Source of the DNA: Apostichopus japonicus
Taxonomy: Eukaryota; Echinodermata; Holothuroidea; Aspidochirotida; Stichopodidae
Assembly (NCBI RefSeq): GCF_037975245.1
Contig: NC_092568.1
Span: 8,691,001-8,755,000 of the forward strand
DNA: 64,000 nucleotides
Reading direction: 5' to 3'
The notes beneath the pieces are model-generated. The model ran no database searches and had not been told where the DNA came from. It saw only the letters and a list, made by a program, of their open reading frames with translations. Shown piece after piece: positions 2,940 to 48,000 of the stretch. Position 1 is the stretch's first letter, and every line of letters starts with the position of its first letter. The position numbers were made by a program, and so were the translations under genes.

Positions 2940-3498
2940 CAGTGGCGGCGGAACCGGGGGGTGGGGGCTTCGGGGGGCTCAGCCCCCAATGAAAAAGTTG
3001 ACGGGGCAAATGCATGATAAGACCCCCCCCCCCAATATTTACCAAGGCTCCGAAACGTGCATCTGCCCATTTTCAATGCATACTTGTCAATCTGTCCGAT
3101 GCACACGTATACTATATAGGTGTAATAATTTTAGTAAATGCTGGGGGACCCTCGGCCCGTCCCCTGGCTATAGACCACATTGTCACCCCAACCGCGTCTT
3201 CACACCCCGTGAAAAGTGGAAGCATTGAGTGTGAGTACCGGTAAGCGCAACACAACTTCGTCTTAGGCCAATGACTTGCCTCATTTCAGCCAGAGAAATT
3301 GCAGGCTTGAGACCCATATTTTAGGGCTAGGTATTCGCATCATAAAACACTCGGGAAGTGCCGTTTCCGGCCATCTGGGGGTTTGAAAAACCCAAAATTT
3401 TCTTGTACGCTCCGCGCCAAGCGATGGTGGCGCTCGGCTTAGATAGTCTCCACACATTAGCCCCCCCCCCCAATTATTTTCCCGTTCCGCCACGCCTG
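2940..3498. mobile_element. Non-autonomous hAT-type element A (559 bp)
   Basis: The ends CAGTGGCGGCGGAACCGG and CAGGCGTGGCGGAACGGG (right end read inward) are imperfect terminal inverted repeats. They are flanked by a perfect 8-bp duplication ACCGATAC at 2932-2939 and 3499-3506, the hallmark of hAT transposition. There is no transposase. The interior carries a C11 tract, a C-rich tract and a block shared with the elements at 12950, 16926 and 25036 (for example GATGGTGGCGCT and CCGTTTCCGGCCATCTG). It begins 27 bases after the stop codon of gene 1, so it sits in that gene's 3' UTR or just beyond it. Confidence 0.92.
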
Positions 3499-8211: not shown

Positions 8212-11200
8212 GAATCGACAGACTCAAGATAGTTAATGCGCCAGTATAGTTACCTTGGATGCATAGCTTTCTATATGAAAATATTGCAAGCGATTTTTGT
8301 TTTAACTACACTACGGGGTCGCTGTTTCATAAAATATGCAAATCATATATATACACTCTTTGATAACCCATTTAGATTGACACTTACGTGTTACATTACC
8401 CATTGTATACATAATACTTTTTAAGAAAAGTCACCTAGGAAAGAACAAACAGGCTAACTTACATGGTGATATCATGAGCTGATTCCCATTTCTACACAGC
8501 CCGTCTGCATTCTATTAACTACTGTGAAAATGGGCTGCACTTTTTACCAGGCTCCCTTGCCCGCCGGACCACCGGCCCACAGGGCATTGCCCAAATGCCC
8601 GTGTGGCCAGTCCGCCACTGCCCTTAAGTAATGTTCGATCCCTTGTGTAACCCATGCTGAAATTTACTCCGCAATTCCATAGTTTATTACTATCGTATGG
8701 AAATATGATGCGCGGGAGTTATCTACTATATATAAAATACCAAACACCTGCATCATTTGCTTCTTACTGCAGCCTACGCTTTCGTCAGTTGTGTATTAAC
8801 ACGAGGTTATGATACGTTCTAAATATTGACATAAGTACGATATACAATTTGCTGCTTTTCATCAACTCGGCGAAGGTATTGAAGTCATGACCAGTTCCCT
8901 AGGGTGGTACTAAGTACCTGTATCCATGTCTGATTTCGGAAACGAGCAATTTTCTGAGCAAAAGAAGGGGCCAGAATGATACAAGCTGTCATTCTATCTC
9001 AGAGAAAGCAACAAATCAACAACAACCATATTACCGTTAGTTCACATTTATGACATACTTTTTGCCTACTGACATGAATAGTTGTACAGAGAGAGAGGGG
9101 GAAGGGGAAGGGGTGTGTTTGGGGGGGGGAAGATATTAGAGAACGTCTGCCAATCTCACCTCTCCCAACTGTTATTCAAAATCGTTTGGTATGTTATTCA
9201 GATGTTTTTTAACAAATAACTTGGAGACGACTCGACCTCCTTTATAGATGATCTATCTATAACCGCTTCGAAATGTACAGCCAGGTTAGTTACGTAACGA
9301 AATTATGTCAAATTAAGCCCAGATATGAAAACTGATTTTCTGATTATAAAAGTTTGTTTATCTACAATTATGTTGGCTTTGACAGAAGGTTAAATTTTCT
9401 GGTAAAATATCTATCAGATTGTTCAATCACACGTGGTAATGTGAAAACTGCCTTTTTTTTGCGTTTAATTCTAAACATCCTGACAGAAACCCATTGAAAG
9501 GTTACTCAAAAAAATAAGGTATCTGATAAACAATTTAATGCGTGACGTCACTCAGTGAAACGTCGGGCAGATTGAAACGAGACGGTAATATTATCAAAGA
9601 TTTAACCATTCAAACAATAAACAACAAAAACAAAACATTAAATTCGTTATCACAAATAATTTGTGTGCGTGTGTTGTCTGAGTGTGTCTGTATGTAAGGA
9701 TAAATATTTCGGTGATTTGAATACTTTCTGGCGGGATCATGTCTTACATATGCAAAGTATACTATCTGCTAAATTTCTATTGTAATCTTAGCTACAAGAA
9801 TTCTTTTTTTCTTTGTCAAATAATTTGGAACAAAAGTACGATTCAAGTTGATAACAAGCCAATAATTGCTTATCATGCATTGGAGTGAGCGTGACACATT
9901 TGCTTGTTACCCAATGGTAATACCAGTTCCTAATACCATGGTTACGTACATTAGTTTACCCCTCACTCATTCGCACAATGGGAGAATCCCTGCTAGGGAG
10001 AATCCCCTGCTAGTGAGCCTCTGCCACTCGTAGTTCATGCGATTGAAAGATTGAAAAGAGGTGGGCCACGGTTGTATTATTCACTTTCTTTCGATCTAAT
10101 GTCGTTAATTTTAAATCCATTGAAGAATCAACTAGCGTATAAAGCTCTTTTATGATTGCATATAAAGTGTTTATTTTCAATTGGAATTTCATACAAGAAT
10201 GATTTACCCTTTTAGCATACCTCCCATTTCATGGAGAATAATTCTTGGATCAACGTAATCTCTAATCCTATAATGACTAGAAAGGAAATGCCAAAGAATG
10301 TTTCTACAGTTCACATGTTCTCATGGTTTATTCCTTCCTTTTGATTCAGACTTACAACAGCTCTAAGAATACTTTGTAACATGATGTTTTTTTCAAGATT
10401 AAATATAAGTTACATGAATAAATTTGGTCAGGTGATGAAGTGAAAGTAAAGCAGAGTTCTGGATGCGTTTTGGATTAATTTTCAATCCCATACTCTATAT
10501 GAGAGGCGATTCAAATACCTCTTTTCAAATCAGCAGAAGAAGGAGGAAACTTTATCTTGATTATGTTCACAGGAAACTTATGCAATTGAATATTTCATTT
10601 TCATAGAGATCTAATGGACAATTTTCATTGTTCAGTAACGAATGGTATGAGAAGGAGGGGCGGCGGTGAAGGTAGGGTAGCTATGACCATGATATTGGGA
10701 TGATATTGCCTCCTATAACTTATGTTTTATATGAGTGATTATAACTGTTGATGTAGTCGACCATGCATGTCATAGTGTTGACTTGTATTGCACATATAAA
10801 AGCTATAAAGCGTCTCTTAAAAACTCATTTATTCCAAAATTTACAGTGATTTGACTTGCATATTTATGTAAACTTGTTTAGGCGCTTTGAGGCCTTTGCA
10901 TAAAGCGCTCTATAAATATTTGCTTATTATTATTATAAAACATCCAAACCCCGTCCTCGTCACCGTCCCAACCTCATTACCATTCAATCTTTCAAAATGC
11001 AACAATTGTAAACGACGTGATCAAGTTGGCTGCTAATAAATCAAAATTTGATATTTATAAAGATGGTTCTAATATTTTGTACTAAGCGAAATACACACTT
11101 CTGTATATGTGTGGAACACAGTCATTTGGGGGCGGGGGGGGGGGGGCTATCGACGCAAATGCCGCAGTTTCAGAGGATCAATAAGCACATCAAGTCACTG

Positions 11201-12904: not shown

Positions 12905-14576
12905 CGCTTTCAACCCCAGTCCCCTTGCAGTGAGACTGTGACTGTGTGACAGCGACGTAGCCAGGAATTTGAAAGGGGGGGGAGCACTTTTTGCGATTGA
13001 TATCGATTTTCAAAAATTTATGCACGACTATATGAGCGGAGCGCCACCATCGGTTGGCGCGGAGCGTACAAGAAAATTTTTGGTTTTACAAACCCCCCAG
13101 ATGGCCGGAAACGGCCCTTCCCGAGTGTTCATGCTGGTTCCATGGCCTCTTGCTAACTTGAGACACCTCATTCAATATCACTTTTCAACCAAAAAAACAA
13201 ACGAGTTAAGATAGTACATAATTCAATAATACATAATGTATTTAAAATTAGCAAGGTACATGTACAGAGTAGTCTTACTTTTCAACTGCTGATACTTGTA
13301 GTTACATATATAGATAGGCCAGAAATGTCTTAGATACAACTATAGCCAGTAATTATCTTTGATACAACTGTAAATGTTTAAGTTAGCCTAATAAGAGAAG
13401 GCGAGAGCTATCCGACGATTGCCATCTGATTCAAATTTCTCAACTGTTTTCTCAACTGAAATATTATCTGCGTAAACAGGTTCTTAACTAGATGTTACAA
13501 CACTGACAAGATCGGATCCTATAGTCTTTTTCAGCGGGTAGAGTGTTGAATGAAACGGCACGCGATAGAAATGACAGCCTAAATTAGAAGACTAGGTCAC
13601 CTAATTAAGCCATATTCTTGCTACGTTCATTTCAATAGTTATTCCTGTCTAGACTCTTAAACTCGTCCAGCAAGCTTATGGATTTGAAATATGGGTGTTT
13701 TTAAAAAAAGATAACTTGGCCAAAAAAAGTGTAGGCCCGGGCCCACAGTGCTACATACTGGCTACGCCCCTGATCATATGATATCATATTATCAGCAGAT
13801 TTTGTTTCCTGTTTGAATTCTTTTACATGTTCTTTTACATAATACATCAGAAAGACAAACATAGTGCTCTTTTACAATTTTTCAAGTAGGATGATTCTTG
13901 TTTATTGTCCAATGTCTGGACTTTAATACATTTGACCAACTTAACTGATGGACATTGGACAATATAAACTCTCATATTTTGGAATATAGCCATATATGCA
14001 GTGGCCTAAAAACAAATATCGTTATCACAGTGTATTAGCAGTGTAATAATTATTATAGGAAGTGCGTATCACGTACGATTGCTAGCTTGGCTTCATTACA
14101 TGCTGTTCGTGCACAACTTAGGACGAATCATAGAAAGGATGAGATCGAACGTTGTCGACGTTGTTGTGCATACGGTTCGTGACATTCCATAGAGTGAGGT
14201 TAGGTAGGCAATATGTATTTTATTACGCAGTGGCCAACTGTAGGCTTGTAATAGGCTATAGGCTAAATTTAGCTAATTGCATCTGCCAAACTAAGTAAGT
14301 AGTTGAATCAGTAGGCATGAATGTTACTACGATTATAATTGAGTTAACGGAGCTGACGAGTATTCAAGATCAAAAGAGCACTGACAAAATACCATGCTAA
14401 AAACACAACAGTTTTTAAACATTTTTTTTCGACACTGAAAGGGGGGAGCGGTCGCTCCCCCTGCTTCCCCCCCCCCTGGCTACGTCCTTGCTGTGTGATC
14501 ATCGTCAGGTGTGTATCACCATTCCCCTCGAAGGGGAACAGATACTACACATGATCTTAGCCAAAAGGCCGAGAAG
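12905..14576 (-). mobile_element. U2-snRNA-headed SINE, copy 1, split by a hAT insertion
   Basis: On the minus strand 14576-14536 reads CTTCTCGGCCTTTTGGCTAA then GATC and GTGTAGTATCTGTTC. This is the 5' end of U2 spliceosomal RNA, with about one change. It then leaves U2 and runs through a small hairpin (CCCTTCGAGGGG) to GATGATCACACAG at 14491. After the 1541-bp insert it resumes at 12949 with TCACAGTC and GCAAGGGGACTGGGGTTG. The same non-U2 body follows the same head at 47367-47531, so this is a repeat family with an snRNA-derived head. A functional U2 gene is ruled out because the branch-point and Sm regions are missing. Confidence 0.8.
12950..14490. mobile_element. Non-autonomous hAT-type element B (1541 bp)
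   Basis: The ends are CAGCGACGTAGCCAGG and, read inward from the right, CAAGGACGTAGCCAGG. The flanking 8-bp duplication CTGTGTGA is perfect (12942-12949, 14491-14498). It carries the internal block shared with elements A, C and D (GCGCCACCATCG, GATGGCCGGAAACGGC). A second terminus-like motif (CTGGCTACGCCCCTG, ending at about 13772) suggests nesting or a composite structure. No transposase frame was recognised. Confidence 0.9.
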
Positions 14577-16925: not shown

Positions 16926-17317
16926 CAAGGGCGGCGGAACCGGGGGGCACAGGGGGCACAGGGGGCACGTGCCACCCACGTTTCCTCAGGTTAAAAATGT
17001 GCCCTTTTTCTACATAAAAATTGAGGTGTCTCAAGTTAGCAAGAGGCCAGGGAACCAGAATGAACACTCGGGAAGGGCCGTTTCCGGCCATCTGAGGGGT
17101 TTGTAAAACCAAAATTTTTCTTGCTAGTATGCATATTTTCCTTCAAGGGGGGGGGGGGGGCGTTGATGGAGTGATGTGTATACGCAAATAAGATATACAG
17201 AGCTATAAAGGGTACTAAATATAAGGCTGCATCAGTCCAATCGAATTTCTGCAAAGTGCCCTTTGATGTCGGTGCCCCCCCCCCCCCCCCAGATTAAAAG
17301 TGCTTCCGCCGCCCTTG
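16926..17317. mobile_element. Non-autonomous hAT-type element C (392 bp)
   Basis: The ends are CAAGGGCGGCGGAACCGG and, read inward, CAAGGGCGGCGGAAGC. A perfect 8-bp duplication TATAGCAC flanks it (16918-16925, 17318-17325). It contains the family block seen in element B in inverse order (GAGACACC/GCCTCTTGC, CCGTTTCCGGCCATCTG) plus a G14 and a C16 tract. It has no coding capacity. Confidence 0.93.
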
Positions 17318-23042: not shown

Positions 23043-26000
23043 CTGAAAACATAAAAACGAAAGTTCTATAGATCGTTTTCCAAAAAAGTAATGATAACAA
23101 TAAATAATAATAATAATAAACAGTTCTTATTAAGCGCCCGTAACAGAAGTCTCAGGGCGCTTTACAAATATAAAAGTCATAAAATACAAAAAGAATACAA
23201 GTCAAACACACAACAAAAGAAGCAAAAGACCGCTGACCAGACAAGGAACATGCAACGAAAGAGCAAACCAATAAGAAAACCAGTGTCTGGCCATCGATCC
23301 TGACCTATTCTAAAAAATAAACCAAACCAATTTGATATAAAATCAAACATGTATAAACAAGAGAAAAGTATACAGTATGCTATATTCTATGTGAGACAAA
23401 ACGCAAACGCTCAGCACGGCATTCATCTACATTAGTGGTTTTCTGTAGAGTTCAATCCGCTCACCAAGAAGCAAAGCTGCCAACAACATTGCACTAATCG
23501 GGCATGTAGGAGCCACTTAAGATTATTAGTTTGTCCATTTACCTACCGGCAAACCCTGTACATTGCTCATTCGTAGGTACAGTGAATTTATTTTTATATT
23601 TGTAACCCTTTGTTGCAATCAATTGTTGTTTGTTTGTGTGGTCCTCGTAGAAATGATTCGTGGACCCCTTGATCTACATATCTGTTGTGTGAAAATCGCA
23701 ATCCTACGAATGCCCATTAGTGCCATTGAAAAAAAAATCGGCGGGTCTGGGGTTGTTTTTTTTTTTAGTATGTAAATTATAAATTTAGGCGTCTACAAAT
23801 TATTTGTCTCAAAACAACAGAGATGCCCAATTTATTTCTCGGAAAAAAGATAATATGTCAACTTCTCTCTTTCTCCACGTCCCTCCCAACCCCCCCCCCC
23901 CAAAAGAACACTATAGTGGGCCAACGTAAAACCGCCGTTCCACAATTGACGTAGCCTATTAATTATACGATATAACATTATCATAGGTAGCTGGCCGTTC
24001 TTTCAGTACTTGCGAGTCGGCCACAGACTTTATACATCGCTTACATTCTTATTGTATGTAACCTCAAGCAAGAATTATGAACGAGAAACTGTCAGAACTC
24101 ACCGAGAACTTTCATGAACACACTTGAAATCCCCATCATAACTGATCGGTCCCTTTCTTCAACGAGTCTGTAAAAGAAAAACAATGAAAACTTTAATAAA
24201 AGTGAAAAAGAAACTCATTAACGAAAAAACCGACTGGAAGCTTGTTATTAATCTGAAATGAGCATTTATAAGCAAGAAGGAGATTCGACTCAAAATAAAA
24301 AGTAACGCCGGGATTGTATACAATTAAACTGGGGTGTAATCCGTGGCTACACATATACAACTTACTGTGGCTTCCGCGACTGGTATGGCGCAACCCCCCC
24401 CCCCCGCACCACAGTAGAGAAGTGGTCCCATATAAGGGGCCGCCAATCACGAGTACATCGCTGGTTAACTCGTTTGGTATAGCGCGGGAAAGTGGTAATA
24501 CTTATCTTTAACAGCTATAAACCGTAGCTATAGTGTTGAACGACTGGGGGGATGGTGAAAACCTGGGGAGGGGGAAAACTGGGAATAAGGGGGTACTTCA
24601 AAGTCATATGTTGCAATGTAGTTTTTGATCATATGTAGATCCCCTCGTTCATGCATCCCCCCCCCCCTCACGGTATAGCGCACTTTACACTGTATGTGAC
24701 CTACCTGATCTGTAACATCAGCGTCGGATTTGCGGCAAAAGTAACCAGAGTGAAAAATAGCATATTGACAGCTATGTAAACTATCCACATATTATCACAG
24801 CCTGTAGGACAAGCCTCAGAGAAAGCGTACCCTTCGTCTTCTTGGTAGAAATCATTGGATAAATCTATCGGTACACAACTGCATTGAATAAAAACCTGTA
24901 ACCAAAAAGTAAAGCATACTTCTAAAATTTTGTAAATTTCAGATTATGCATGGCAAAGAGCGATCCCTCAGAGCAGTGACTTATAAGTCAGGGGTGGGGG
25001 AGTGGTTGGTAGTGGGTAGGTATCCAACCCTAAAGCAGACGTGTAGCCAGGGGGCGAAGGGGCGACCGCCCCCCCCCCCTGAGCATATATTTTGTATGTT
25101 TTGATGATATCGCTAGTTATTTCAAGCATAGATGCAACTTACAAGGCCCGGGAAGTGCCATTTCCAGCGACCTGGAGGTATTTTCAGCCAAAATTTTCTT
25201 GTACGCGTAGTGCCAACTCATGGTGGCGCTACGCTTATAGATAGATTTCAATGCAGAATCTACGGCTCTGCAAGTTTGCCTACAGGTTTGCCCCTCCCTT
25301 GGCAAATTCATGGCTACGCCCTAAGGGCGTCGCTCAGGACATAATTTTTGTACGCAATCTAAAACTCAAGCATTTACACACTTATATATTCATTTATGCA
25401 CTGAGTGTTATGAATATTCATATAGCTACGTACTGTTGAGTTTTTCCCAGATATTTCCCAGGTCTCTTGCGACTTGCATCCAGCGTGACAAGGTGTGATG
25501 TAAGTGATGCCATCCGAACCACATACCGGTTGGTAGTTGACTGTACAATCACAATCATTATTGCACATATGGTCTAAATCTGATGGCGTTTCCCCCCTAT
25601 ATGTTGTTTGATACAACAAGTAAAAGAAGAGACGTGATAAGGTTAAAAGCAAGATGAAAGGGGTGGGGGGGGGGTGCAGGTATAGGGAGGAGAGTTGAGG
25701 GTACGGAAGAGTGAGAAGGTGGGTAGAATGAAGTCGAACACTGTTGAACATTGTTATAAACATGGTGAGTTCTTAACAAAGTTTACTCTTTACTCTTGAT
25801 TTCTATGACATACGAGTCCATGTAAACCAGGCTTTGGTTTGAAACGAAAATAAGGAACAACATACTTCGCGTCCATTAGTTACCCTGGATAACACTTGAT
25901 CAAGAACATACAACGATTCGTTTCCCTATTGCACAAATACTGATACGGAAATTGTATAGTTTCATCACTATCATAATTCACACTAACTTACATACGAAGC

Positions 26001-34923: not shown

Positions 34924-35568
34924 CAGGGGCGTAGCGAAGGGGTTTTTGTTGGGGGGGGGGGTGTGGAGAATTTGATTTGCCGACGGATCTGGAAGTGGTG
35001 ACTGAAATGGGAAAGGGGTCTAAGGGGAGGGGGTGTCCCCCTCCCCTTTGGCAAATTTTTAGTTTTGAAACGTCCTTAGATGCAATCTGGTGTATATTTT
35101 AAGTCAAATTTGATTTGCCGACGGATCTGGAAGTGTTGACTGAAATGGGGGAGGGGTCTAAGGGGAGGGGGTGTCCCCCTCCCCTTTGGAAACTTTTTAG
35201 TTTTGAAACGTCCTTAGATGCAATCTGGTGCATATTTTAAGTCAAATTTGATTTGCCGACGGATCTGGAAGTGGTGACTGAAATGGGGGAGGGGTCTAAG
35301 GGTAGGGGGTCTACCCCTCCCCTTTGGAAAATTTTTAAGTTTTGAAACGTCCTTAGATGCAATCTGCTGCATATTTTAAGTCAAATTTGGCACGGAAGAA
35401 GCTCCCGTTCTCCTTTTCTCTATTCAGCTTTCCTTCTTTCTTCCCCTTCCGCTCTCTGCACCTTTTCTCCTTTTGCCGACAGACCCAAAATTTGCCGACA
35501 GCGACCAAATTATTGGGGGGTGTGACACCCCCCCACACCCCCCCCCCCCCCCGCTCGCTACGCCCCTG
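34924..35568. mobile_element. Non-autonomous hAT-type element F (645 bp) with internal triplication
   Basis: The ends are CAGGGGCGTAGCGA and its exact inverse TCGCTACGCCCCTG. A perfect 8-bp duplication CGATTGAG flanks it (34916-34923, 35569-35576). The interior is about three copies of a 138-bp unit starting at 34981, 35119 and 35257 (CGACGGATCTGGAAGTG). It lies in the divergent intergenic region between genes 2 and 3. Confidence 0.95.
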
Positions 35569-45051: not shown

Positions 45052-48000
45052 TGTACACATAGGCGTAGGGGCCCAATTTGTTTTGGGGCGCTTTGACGAC
45101 TTGCCCGAAAAATATAACCAAAATTTTTCGCGGGTGTAATTTCATATAGGCACGCACCGGTTGTTACATCGCATGCCAATTACATACAATCATTTGCCGT
45201 GTTATTACCCTTCCATATTGGTTATTATTTTTCGGGAAGTCGTTACAATAATAATGATAATAATAATATAAGTTTAACCATTGAAAAACACATCGCAATT
45301 TATTTTTCTAATCAGTAGTTGCCCGGAAAAGTCTCAGCATATTGCCCGAATTTTCACAAAAAATATTTGGTTGGGGGCTGCAGCCCCCCTCCCAACCCCA
45401 ACCACCCCGCCTCCTGCGCCTATGGGTATACATGTACTTGTTTATGGGTATAGATACTACACATGATCCGATTACAGGTTGGTTAGTAATCCCAACTGGG
45501 AATCGGAAGGTGGCATACTACATATAGAATATGTATCAATCCGCCTGATTGTTGTCCTATCTCAGGAAAATGGCCGAAACTGTATCAGGTGAACATCTTT
45601 TTAGATATTTTATCAAACAAAATATGTTCTATTGTTTTGTTTTGTAGCTTGGATAATAAAAAGCATGATGGGGAGTTCATGTGGTGAAAAATGGGTCAAT
45701 TGAGGCAATTTGAGAACACTTTAGGCCTCCCAGGAACAGCGTATGAATTTTTTTTACTACTGAGTGAAGCGGTTTGCTTACCAGTGACAAAACCTTCAGG
45801 CGCTCATAGCAATAAAATCTTACATGGCCATGATACGGAAACTTGATGGTGCCATGCGTGGCGAACTTGTCAACTGTGAAGTGATGGGTAGCGGTTAGCT
45901 GCGGAGAACTTATATAATGACACTTAGAGACCACATTACTTTGACGATTTAGTATGTAAGTCAATGGGGGAAATTATATGGAGTATGCTACCTTAACATG
46001 TACTACACAGGTATTGTACCACAATTAATCGTTCCATTAACTTACACACTAAACTTCTCGTCAGATAGAAGTTTTCAACTGGCATATCCTACCCACCACA
46101 CGATAGCTGCAGTCTTGGCCTATCATGGTACTTCATGCCTTTTTTTTATATTGAGCTAGAAGAGGAGCAAGTTTAGCACACTGACCCCCAACTCTTCCGT
46201 CTGCGCGAAGTAATTTTAAAATTTAACCAGAGAATCTTTAAAATAGTTATATCACCTTCAATCCTCCCTATTTTCACACCATATGTACTTTAAATTATGC
46301 TCTTTCACATAAAGGCAGGAATTGCAGTGATAGTAACTAATACTATATATGCTAAGACAAGCAATACATTAGGTCATTTTAGCTTCTGTTTCATTCGACA
46401 ATGGTTAACCTTTCGAGCGCATGTACACTACTCTAACTGTTGTACGGTTGCTACAAATGATTTTGGTCAAAGGTTGAGGAGTGAGCTAAACTCTTTTATT
46501 GCCTGTATTATAGGTACCGCACCACAATTACAGTAATGTTCATCCGCTCGAAAGGTTAACCATTGTCAGAGAAAAGAGGTAAAAGTACCTAAGGTAAAGC
46601 TTGTTTAAGCATGTGATCAGTTACTGTCATCGTTTGTTCTGCCTACATATGAAAGAGCATAATTTAAAGTACAAATGGTGTGAAAATAGGGAGGATCGAA
46701 GGTGATAGTAAACCATTTTAGAAAATATTTGGTTAAATGTTGATATTACTCCGAGCGAGCAGATGGAAGGGTGAGGGGGGGGGGGTTCAGTATGCAAAAC
46801 TTGCTCCTCTTATAGCTCAAAATCTAAACGGTCATGATATAAAAGTTTGCAAGTGCCATGATAGGCCAAGATCTCAGCTATCATGTGGTGGGTAGGATAT
46901 ACCAGTTGAAAATTTCTACCTATGCTTTGGCAGGTCTTGAAAGTGACAAGTTAAGTGTGTAAGTCAACGGAACAATTAATTGTGGTGCGAGATCTAAAGT
47001 CTACACCTGGAATTTGTTACACAAGTGTAGTCTGATCACTTGGGTACTATCCTTTATGTAGGTTACATGACAAAATCACAAGTCTAGTATATATATACAC
47101 CGTATACTAGGTACAGGTACTATAGACCTATTCAAAAAGTTCTACGAACCGTGAAGTTAGCATTTGTACAATTCTTTCGGGGATTTGTTTGCCTTTTCTG
47201 TAGATTTTGTGTATAGTTTAGTTACAAAGCATAGAATTATGTTAACATTAGATCACAAGACATCTATTGCGTAGGGTGTAGGGAAATCATTCAGGTCTAG
47301 ACAATATAAGGCAGCACTGGCATTGGAAGAAACTGAAGAATCTGACATTAGAAGCAAAGGCGATCATGTGTAGTATCTGTTCCCTTTCGAGGGGAATGGT
47401 GATGCACACCCGACGATGATCACACAGTCACAGTCCCGATGCAAGGGGACTGGGGTTGAGAGCGGATCAGTCGTTCGGTAGTTTGGTTTTCGTGCCCAGG
47501 TTCTTTCCTGGGCGACTTTTTCTTAAAAAGTAAGGCGATCACCATCATCTTCCAATACATGGTCTGTACTAATATCAGACAATCGAGACAAACTACGCAA
47601 ATATCTCCCTGTAAATTAAACTATACCCATGAGGTCACATTGAGAGGCTTATTCAATATAGGCCCTCTTATCTAAGGTCGTGTATATACGAAAAGAAGAT
47701 ACAGAACAGTGCACGTGCTGAGTAGTGACATGGGGGTGGGGGAGGTTGGGGTTTGGGGGAGGAGTAAAGTGGACAAGCAAACATTTTTTCTACAGATCGG
47801 AAGCGTAAAACAAACACAGAAAACTAGAGCCAGCCAGAGGAATGGGAAAAGCTGACTTAACTGGGTGGGGGGGGGGGGGTGGGGTGCCGCGGCCCTGGCA
47901 ATACCACCCTCCCTAGCCTTAAGAAAAGAAAAAGTCCCTCCCTGGTGGCTGGGCTGTTGCCCGGTACATCTTGTAGATTGCTCGATATCCTTCTAATAAA

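What the first reader, a model, noticed from the sequence alone, without database searches (positions are those of the whole stretch)
12905..14576. SINE with a U2 snRNA head, interrupted by a hAT element
A 41-base match to the 5' end of U2 snRNA begins a repeat whose body is unrelated to U2 and recurs at 47367. snRNA-headed SINEs are rare (SINEU of crocodilians is the known case). A perfect 8-bp duplication lets the two halves be joined unambiguously across a 1541-bp insert, which dates the SINE before the hAT burst.
Basis: partly seen in the sequence, partly recalled or inferred. Interest (0 to 1): 0.75.

Follow-up and report, generated by a model that had tools for sequence, protein, structure and literature searches.

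The report
Sea cucumber SINE targeting U2 genes
A short jumping DNA in what is very likely the sea cucumber Apostichopus japonicus inserts itself into the genes for U2, an RNA of the splicing machinery, and probably borrows their promoter, which would explain why its many scattered copies begin with up to 45 letters of U2.

Summary
On the minus strand, window 14576-12905 is a short repeat headed by U2 snRNA, split by a 1541-bp hAT-like insert with a perfect 8-bp duplication. A second copy (47362-47531) has its own 10-bp target duplication. The genome (671.6 Mb, echinoderm by mitochondrial code; size and scaffolds match the published Apostichopus japonicus assembly) holds a young 194-nt family. 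Its first 45 nt equal the host's own U2 (45/45), and the body matches no Rfam family.

The genome shows more. In the host's tandem U2 array the element sits inside six U2 genes, always directly before U2 nt 38, with duplications of 8 to about 16 bp, and some copies are headless truncations. Two Keno-like LINEs (one shown to have APE endonuclease and RT) occupy the same site. Dispersed copies sit at sites resembling its start (A-T-C). Of eight exact tail-U2(38-45)-body joints, seven lie outside the array.

Best reading: a U2-gene-targeted SINE, probably transcribed from the U2 promoter, whose "head" is the stretch of U2 between start site and insertion point. The helper LINE and the transcription are inferred, not shown.

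The parts
14536..14576 (-). U2 head of SINE copy 1 (U2 nt 5-45)
   Evidence: 41/41 to the host U2 gene, 40/41 to human U2; RF00004 48.4 bits
14491..14535 (-). Body of SINE copy 1, first part (consensus nt 46-90)
   Evidence: alignment to family consensus; same body at 47383-47427
14491..14498 (.). hAT target-site duplication CTGTGTGA, right copy (within SINE sequence)
12950..14490 (.). hAT-like insert, 1541 bp, inverted ends CAGCGACGTAGCCAGG / CAAGGACGTAGCCAGG
   Evidence: parts repeat elsewhere in the window (I2 and D8)
12942..12949 (.). hAT target-site duplication CTGTGTGA, left copy
12905..12941 (-). Body of SINE copy 1, second part (consensus nt 91-127); nt 128-194 missing
47362..47531 (+). 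SINE copy 2 (consensus nt 25-194; identical to the consensus letters used here), 5'-truncated in the U2 head; nt 25-29 (47362-47366) also belong to the TSD
   Evidence: 39 of the 41 other genome matches listed are 98-99% identical, the other two 93% and 86%
47362..47382 (+). U2-derived part of copy 2 (U2 nt 25-45)
47357..47366 (.). 5' target-site duplication AAGGCGATCA of copy 2
   Evidence: read from sequence; found by script (L001)
47532..47541 (.). 3' target-site duplication AAGGCGATCA of copy 2
8415..8446 (-). Tail-only fragment (consensus about nt 163-194, 91%)
45446..45468 (-). U2-like fragment GATCATGTGTAGTATCTATACCC, probable old remnant
   Evidence: 21/23; context

Best explanation
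It is a 194-nt non-autonomous retroelement (a SINE in the broad sense) that targets U2 snRNA genes. SHOWN: copies sit inside six U2 genes of the host array, always directly before U2 nt 38, with U2 sequence from nt 38 on repeated on both sides; two LINE families, one with APE endonuclease and RT domains and the other 41% identical to it in the part read, occupy the same point in the same array; the dispersed copies carry up to U2 nt 1-45, in the consensus identical to the host gene, have target-site duplications, 5' truncations and one apparent 5' inversion, and sit at sites that begin A-T-C (weakly T) like the U2 site. INFERRED: a Keno-like U2-specific LINE protein nicks U2 after nt 37 and copies the SINE RNA there from its AAAAAGT end; the filled U2 gene is transcribed by RNA polymerase II from the U2 promoter starting at U2 nt 1, giving U2(1-45)-SINE-U2(38-) RNA; that RNA is sometimes copied into off-target sites resembling AGT|ATC. 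The U2 'head' is thus the transcribed piece of target gene upstream of the insertion, not a fused internal promoter. Because the tail ends in AGT, insertion before ATC... recreates part of the recognition site, which would explain the tandem arrays.
For: (1) Two adjacent U2 genes (C16:31132463 and 31133906, which differ in the SINE hairpin) read U2 upstream region, U2 1-45, SINE, AAAAAGT, U2 38 onward. (2) SINE-tail/U2(38-53) junctions: 8 places within 2 mismatches: 6 exact in the C16 U2 array, 1 exact in a diverged U2 copy on C20, 1 with 2 mismatches in a dispersed dimer on C5. (3) Insertions differ in 5' truncation and duplication length: L172 is headless (U2 38-53 repeated), L178 is headless behind a LINE-like 3' end (U2 38-52 repeated), L163 is two SINEs in one U2 gene, the first truncated. 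That is target-primed insertion, not gene conversion with a U2-headed copy. (4) K1 5' ends: 6 places within 2 mismatches, all in that array, all six read and abutting U2 1-50. K2 5' ends: 6 places within 3 mismatches, all in that array, one abutting U2 1-45; a 5'-truncated K2 (L162, 100% over 456 nt) also abuts U2 1-45. K2 ORF2 has PF03372 and PF00078; K1 and K2 are 41% identical. (5) Consensus head 45/45 identical to host U2, including host T30. (6) Off-target flanks after AAAAAGT favour A, T, C and weakly T at positions 1-4, not G at 5, in three sets (n=30, 40 with base 1 fixed, 23); mean match 2.43 of 5 vs 1.31 at random places, maximum 1.90 in 2000 draws. (7) TSDs: 26 of 35 copies with >=7 nt vs 6.4% for shuffled partners; 12 of 35 with >=11 vs 0. 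(8) Tail-U2(38-45)-body joints: 8 exact, 7 outside the array. (9) No A/B box above shuffles; T runs at nt 15, 150, 180 would hinder Pol III.
Against: No transcript was seen, so use of the U2 promoter is inferred. All seven SINE copies in the six array genes carry the markers of one subfamily (TCGTTTGG/GGGTGAC, and GGGCTGAG where that part is present) and the C20 one of another (GGTTAGAAG/TCGTTCAG); the youngest dispersed subfamily (GGTTGAG/GGGCGAC, as in window copy 2) was not found in a U2 gene, so its source is lost, polymorphic or unassembled. The SINE tail is not homologous to the K1 or K2 3' ends beyond about six bases, so the helper is unproven. Five of the six K2 5' ends have other letters than U2 upstream and were not read. 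None of 54 full-length dispersed copies has U2 upstream sequence at E 1e-3; that fits the model but also means dispersed copies are dead ends or are transcribed some other way. Position 4 of the off-target motif is weak (p 0.05, 0.009, 0.07). Of the 69 upstream-plus-head places in the array I read the junctions of only part. The joints outside the array were matched, not read.
Confidence: 0.8

Rival explanations
1. Classical snRNA-headed SINE: the U2 head was fused once to an unrelated body by reverse-transcriptase template switching and now serves as (part of) an internal Pol III promoter; insertion into U2 genes is incidental.
For: The head ends sharply at U2 nt 45 and the body resembles no known RNA; head doubling and end-to-end fusions suggest that template jumps happen in this family (L018/L096; L089 and L097).
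Against: Six filled U2 genes with one exact 3' junction, some copies headless, cannot be incidental. The head stops where the repeated U2 stretch of the two cleanest array copies stops. No A/B boxes above shuffles and three T4+ runs.
Confidence: 0.1
2. Recombination: dispersed SINEs with a U2 head were moved into U2 genes by homologous recombination or gene conversion through the shared 45 nt, so no targeted insertion is needed.
For: The two cleanest array copies share 45 nt with dispersed full-length copies.
Against: Conversion does not explain headless, differently truncated copies (L172, L178, first copy in L163), repeats of U2 nt 38-52/53 at the 3' side, or LINEs at the same nucleotide.
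Confidence: 0.04
3. The head is a relic of former U2 targeting, but current dispersal runs from a few dispersed master copies read by other promoters; the array copies are a side branch.
For: The youngest subfamily is not among the array copies read; 981 places carry the head within 3 mismatches, true U2 genes included, against 6 array junctions.
Against: The young consensus still has a head 45/45 identical to current host U2, copies start at or inside U2 +1, and 7 exact tail-U2(38-45)-body joints lie outside the array.
Confidence: 0.15

Closest known systems
SINEU (crocodilian SINEs with U1/U2-derived heads; Kojima 2015, GBE, PMC4494074, not held; known here from recall and from passages of PMC8010984 and PMC5753468)
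   Same: Short dispersed non-autonomous element whose 5' end is the 5' part of U2; recalled as mobilised by a Tx1-clade LINE.
   Different: Host is an echinoderm; here the element is physically inside U2 genes at a fixed nucleotide. Whether Kojima proposed this origin could not be read.
Keno (Tx1-clade, APE-type LINE specific for U2 genes; as described in PMC4640811, sections 3, 6, 8, 11 read)
   Same: Same 3' junction in U2 (within about one nucleotide of the published site); K2 has APE endonuclease and RT.
   Different: Keno is autonomous; the SINE shares no clear sequence with K1 or K2.
Utopia (restriction-like endonuclease LINE specific for U2 genes; PMC4640811)
   Same: Same U2 site; weakly specific families insert at sites resembling TGTAGTATCTG outside U2 genes, much as this SINE does.
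   Different: The LINE read in full here (K2) has APE, not the restriction-like endonuclease; duplications are 8 to about 16 bp, not 0 (arthropods) or 20 (reptiles).
SIDE elements (short internally deleted R2 derivatives in insect 28S genes; recalled, no call)
   Same: Short non-autonomous partner living in the same gene-specific site as its LINE and read out with the host gene.
   Different: SIDEs derive from their LINE; this body is unrelated to the parts of K1/K2 compared and also disperses widely off target.

Membership tests
SINE (general) | Short, no coding capacity, dispersed, flanked by target-site duplications | tested here: met
   194-nt consensus; 26 of 35 copies with >=7-nt TSD vs 6.4% in shuffled pairs; spread over many contigs
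SINE (general) | Internal Pol III promoter (A and B boxes) | tested here: not met
   Best A- and B-box matches 6 of 9, reached in 100% and 89% of shuffles; T runs at nt 15, 150, 180. Consensus matching only; transcription not tested
SINE (general) | 3' tail related to a helper LINE | tested here: inconclusive
   40 of 40 exact tails read (of 431) were SINE copies; K1 ends GAAAAGT, SINE AAAAAGT, no further similarity in the parts compared
SINEU | Head derived from the 5' end of U1 or U2 snRNA | tested here: met
   45/45 identical to host U2 nt 1-45
SINEU | Sequence homology of body/tail to crocodilian SINEU | not testable with these tools
   No SINEU sequence or Repbase held; the paper is not held
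Keno (for the resident LINEs) | Insertion at the Keno/Utopia site of U2 | tested here: met
   K1 and K2 followed by U2 from nt 38; published site about nt 39
Keno (for the resident LINEs) | APE-type endonuclease plus RT | tested here: met
   K2 ORF2: PF03372 1.5e-20, PF00078 1.3e-33; K1 read only in part, 41% identical
Keno (for the resident LINEs) | Phylogenetic place in the Tx1 clade | not tested
   No reference RT sequences were aligned
U2 snRNA gene | Whole U2 with Sm site and 3' domain | tested here: not met
   Only nt 5-45 match in the window copy; the rest of the Rfam hit runs into the hAT

The most novel reading that the evidence does not exclude
A Pol II SINE that owns no promoter: its productive source genes are U2 snRNA genes it has entered, so each transcript starts at the U2 cap site and dispersed daughters carry the same U2 'head' of up to 45 nt. 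This would predict that snRNA-headed SINEs in general (crocodilian SINEU with U1 or U2 heads) arise from snRNA-gene-targeted LINE/SINE pairs, not from promoter fusion.
Probability: 0.6. Interest if true: 0.85.

Novelty: new variant of a known kind. Interest (0 to 1): 0.78.

Why it matters
SINEs are usually defined by carrying their own Pol III promoter, and snRNA-headed SINEs are puzzling because U1 and U2 are Pol II genes with external promoters (recalled). Here one assembly holds the target gene filled with the element, candidate helper LINEs in the same site, and dispersed daughters bearing the gene's 5' end. That makes the origin of snRNA heads directly testable. It also warns that counts of 'U2 genes' in such genomes may be inflated: the published A. 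japonicus annotation lists 996 splicing snRNAs and only 0.02% SINE (PMC10344927, section 14); that this SINE is the cause is my inference. It further shows a functional-looking snRNA array partly filled by mobile elements.

Tried and rejected
LINE partner by shared tail: 40 loci with an exact 33-nt tail (of 431 in the genome) were read and all 40 are SINE copies. The tail-only piece at window 8446-8415 sits beside an unrelated repeat, so its neighbour is not the partner. Two paired tails 2.7-2.9 kb apart were fetched and were not LINEs: L110 has a 72-bp direct repeat at its two tails, L112 is a 1.6-kb palindrome. Body as tRNA, 5S, 7SL or another structural RNA: no Rfam match except U2. Pol III boxes: nothing above shuffles. 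A master copy outside the array with U2 upstream sequence: none in 54 full-length copies. The exact body pattern in viral contigs: none. A truncated insertion (L171) looked like a third LINE but is K1 (98% over 108 nt). The LINE-like end in L178, first taken for K1, shares only its last 23 nt with K1 and is probably a further family; it was not followed. In one search the stretch printed under L155 was in fact the neighbouring gene of L156; one search read both genes. The U7-like match at 13856-13913 is below its gathering score and was left.

Full report
OBSERVATION. The U2 match is real and on the minus strand: window 14576-14536 equals host U2 nt 5-45, and Rfam scores it just above the U2 gathering score. 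The hAT-like insert is 12950-14490, 1541 bp, with CTGTGTGA on both sides and near-identical inverted ends. The second copy, 47362-47531, has U2 nt 25-45, the body and the tail, and lies between two AAGGCGATCA. This is what target-primed reverse transcription cut short in the head would leave; five bases of the duplication coincide with the element.

GENOME AND HOST. The window's assembly is held: 671,581,487 bases in 35 contigs. Its mitochondrial contig reads AAA as Asn, ATA as Ile, AGA as Ser and TGA as Trp at conserved COX1 positions, and COX1 is followed by what look like ND4L and COX2 frames. That is echinoderm code and order (recalled). The published Apostichopus japonicus assembly has 671.6 Mb, 34 scaffolds and 23 chromosomes up to 46.02 Mb (PMC10344927, passages and section 14); G000 fits, with 34 contigs plus a mitochondrion and C16 of 46,036,110 bases. 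The species name is therefore an inference, a strong one.

THE FAMILY. A search with copy 2 gave 2366 first-look candidates, of which 40 were scored; of the 42 matches listed, 1 is the window copy itself, 39 are 98-99% identical and 2 (second copies beside others) are 93% and 86%. I fetched 20 + 19 loci. The 194-nt consensus is U2 nt 1-45, a body, a hairpin tail and TTAAAAAGT. In the 39 main copies the match starts at nt 1 in 9, at nt 2-8 in 19 and at nt 10-26 in 11. Four of these loci are also in a later exact-head set and were counted there only (on). Duplications of at least 7 nt flank 26 of the 35 left, against 6.4% when flanks are paired at random; at least 11 nt in 12 of 35 against none. 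One copy (L139) carries the head inverted upstream of the body, like LINE-1 twin priming. Counts: 30 exact matches of the first 66 nt; 431 exact 33-nt tails; 981 places within 3 mismatches of a 43-nt head pattern, a figure that includes the true U2 genes. Mean identity to the consensus: best-hit set 97.95% (n=36), exact-tail set 95.55% (n=41), exact-head loci 94.88% (n=39, neighbouring copies included). The body has no Rfam relative, and the RNA folds more stably than shuffles (z -4.2).

THE KEY RESULT. The host U2 genes form a 645-bp tandem array on C16 plus a few genes on C15; of the 46 candidates scored, 42 are on C16 and 4 on C15. In the 20 loci fetched, U2 occurs in four versions, and nt 1-45 of each equal the SINE head, including a T at nt 30. 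I then searched for the last 12 bases of the C16 U2 upstream region followed by the head and the SINE-specific CCC: 69 places within 3 mismatches, all in this array, three of them exact. Two of the three (C16:31132463 and 31133906) are U2 genes with the SINE inside: U2 upstream region, U2 1-45, SINE, AAAAAGT, then U2 from nt 38; the two SINEs differ in their hairpin (one search had shown only one of them). The third (L157) holds a LINE. Of 16 further stretches of the array read, three show other SINE-filled genes: L161 (U2 1-42, then a base difference); L163, with two SINEs in a row separated by ATCTGTTC = U2 38-45; and L172, where a SINE lacking head and early body follows U2 1-53. L173 re-reads one of the first two. 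A search for the SINE-tail/U2(38-53) junction found 8 places: 7 exact, 6 of them in the array and 1 in an old U2 copy on C20 whose upstream does not look like the U2 upstream region; and 1 with two mismatches on C5. The sixth array case (L178) is a headless SINE directly behind a LINE-like 3' end, again with U2 38-52 between and after; that end shares its last 23 nt with K1 but not more. Varying truncation, repeats of 8 to about 16 bp and one fixed 3' junction are what repeated target-primed insertion gives, and what gene conversion does not.

THE LINES. K1 (six 5' ends, all in the array; all six read as abutting U2 1-50; three 3' ends read, GAAAGAAAAGT|ATCTG) and K2 (both junctions of one copy read; 3' end TTAAAAGAA|ATCTG) sit before the same nucleotide, U2 38. 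K2-like 5' ends occur at six places, all in the array: one abuts U2 45, the other five have different letters upstream and were not read. A truncated K2 (L162, 100% over 456 nt) also follows U2 45. K2 has an APE endonuclease and RT; K1 is 41% identical to it over 467 aligned positions. This is the published Keno/Utopia site (U2 about nt 39; PMC4640811, sections 3, 6, 8 and 11 read), and the APE domain points to Keno. The SINE shares no clear sequence with K2 or the parts of K1 held, so the helper is inferred from the shared site alone.

WHY THE HEAD IS TARGET SEQUENCE. First, the head equals the stretch from the U2 start to the end of the repeated target, 1-45, in the two cleanest array copies. 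Second, of 8 exact tail-ATCTGTTCCC joints (12 within one mismatch) 7 lie outside the array; the simplest origin is a doubly filled U2 gene such as L163. I matched but did not read these seven. A C5 dimer that I did read has the longer U2 38-50 as spacer. A template jump at the AGT shared by tail and U2 nt 35-37 is an alternative I cannot exclude. Third, no Pol III box stands out and T runs at nt 15, 150 and 180 speak against Pol III. Fourth, no U2 upstream sequence was found before 54 full-length dispersed copies, as expected if the RNA starts at the cap site.

OFF-TARGET CHOICE. Directly after AAAAAGT the flanks favour A (27 of 30 and 21 of 23 in the two sets where the pattern did not fix it), T (15 of 30, 28 of 40, 14 of 23), C (15 of 30, 15 of 40, 12 of 23) and, weakly, T (14 of 30, 20 of 40, 11 of 23), matching U2 38-41; position 5 (G) is not favoured. 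Copies whose tail the script could not place were left out. Because the tail ends in AGT as U2 35-37 does, each insertion partly rebuilds AGT|ATC. This would explain the tandem arrays: 8 of 30 exact-head loci have an adjacent same-strand copy, with the same 9-nt spacer twice in L094, and nine units spaced by ATCCTAT... in L111. L089 and L097 also show direct AAAAAGT|ATCGC joints, probably template jumps.

LIMITS. No RNA data. The SINE copies in the array carry the markers of one subfamily and the C20 one of another; the youngest dispersed subfamily was not found in a U2 gene. The genome tools scored only the best candidates. Kojima's SINEU paper could not be read, so I cannot say whether this origin was already proposed there. 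Ten literature searches returned no listing whose title or abstract start describes a SINE inserted in snRNA genes; the library lacks most subscription papers and I know of no Repbase Reports in it. The giant squid genome paper (passages) notes about 1,300 U2 loci among high-copy ncRNAs of which it says many are likely to be SINEs, so similar families may exist elsewhere.

Noticed in passing
L155-L159, L161-L164, L166, L168-L172, L178 (C16 about 31.006-31.17 Mb): Part of the host U2 array is filled with mobile elements: SINE, K1 and K2 LINEs share one nucleotide position, sometimes two elements in one gene.
   Followed up: yes
L178 (C16:31006580-31007030): A LINE-like 3' end in a U2 gene that shares its last 23 nt (TTGAATAAACTTGAAAGAAAAGT) with K1 but not the sequence before it: probably a third U2-targeted LINE family.
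   Followed up: partly
L112 (G000:C2:13099600-13103000): A near-perfect (99.6%) 1.6-kb palindrome with a SINE copy in each arm; real hairpin locus or assembly artefact.
   Followed up: no
L081, L086: Some full-length copies carry extra bases before U2 nt 1 that repeat the target flank, as if the reverse transcriptase had switched between target DNA and the RNA 5' end.
   Followed up: no
window 13856-13913 (+): Weak U7 snRNA-like match (23.8 bits, gathering 34) inside the hAT-like insert, beside an inverted repeat around TATTGTCCAATGTC; probably chance.
   Followed up: no
window 3346-3441, 17022-17123, 25143-25237: Other partial copies of sequence from the same hAT-like insert.
   Followed up: no
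window 8443-8520 (-): Piece of another dispersed repeat (353 first-look candidates) next to the SINE tail fragment.
   Followed up: partly
G000:C29:15137-16092: A second, fragmented COX1-like stretch outside the mitochondrial contig, possibly a nuclear mitochondrial insert or assembly fragment.
   Followed up: no
window 34969-35382: Three head-to-tail copies of a 138-bp unit (96% and 72% to the first).
   Followed up: no
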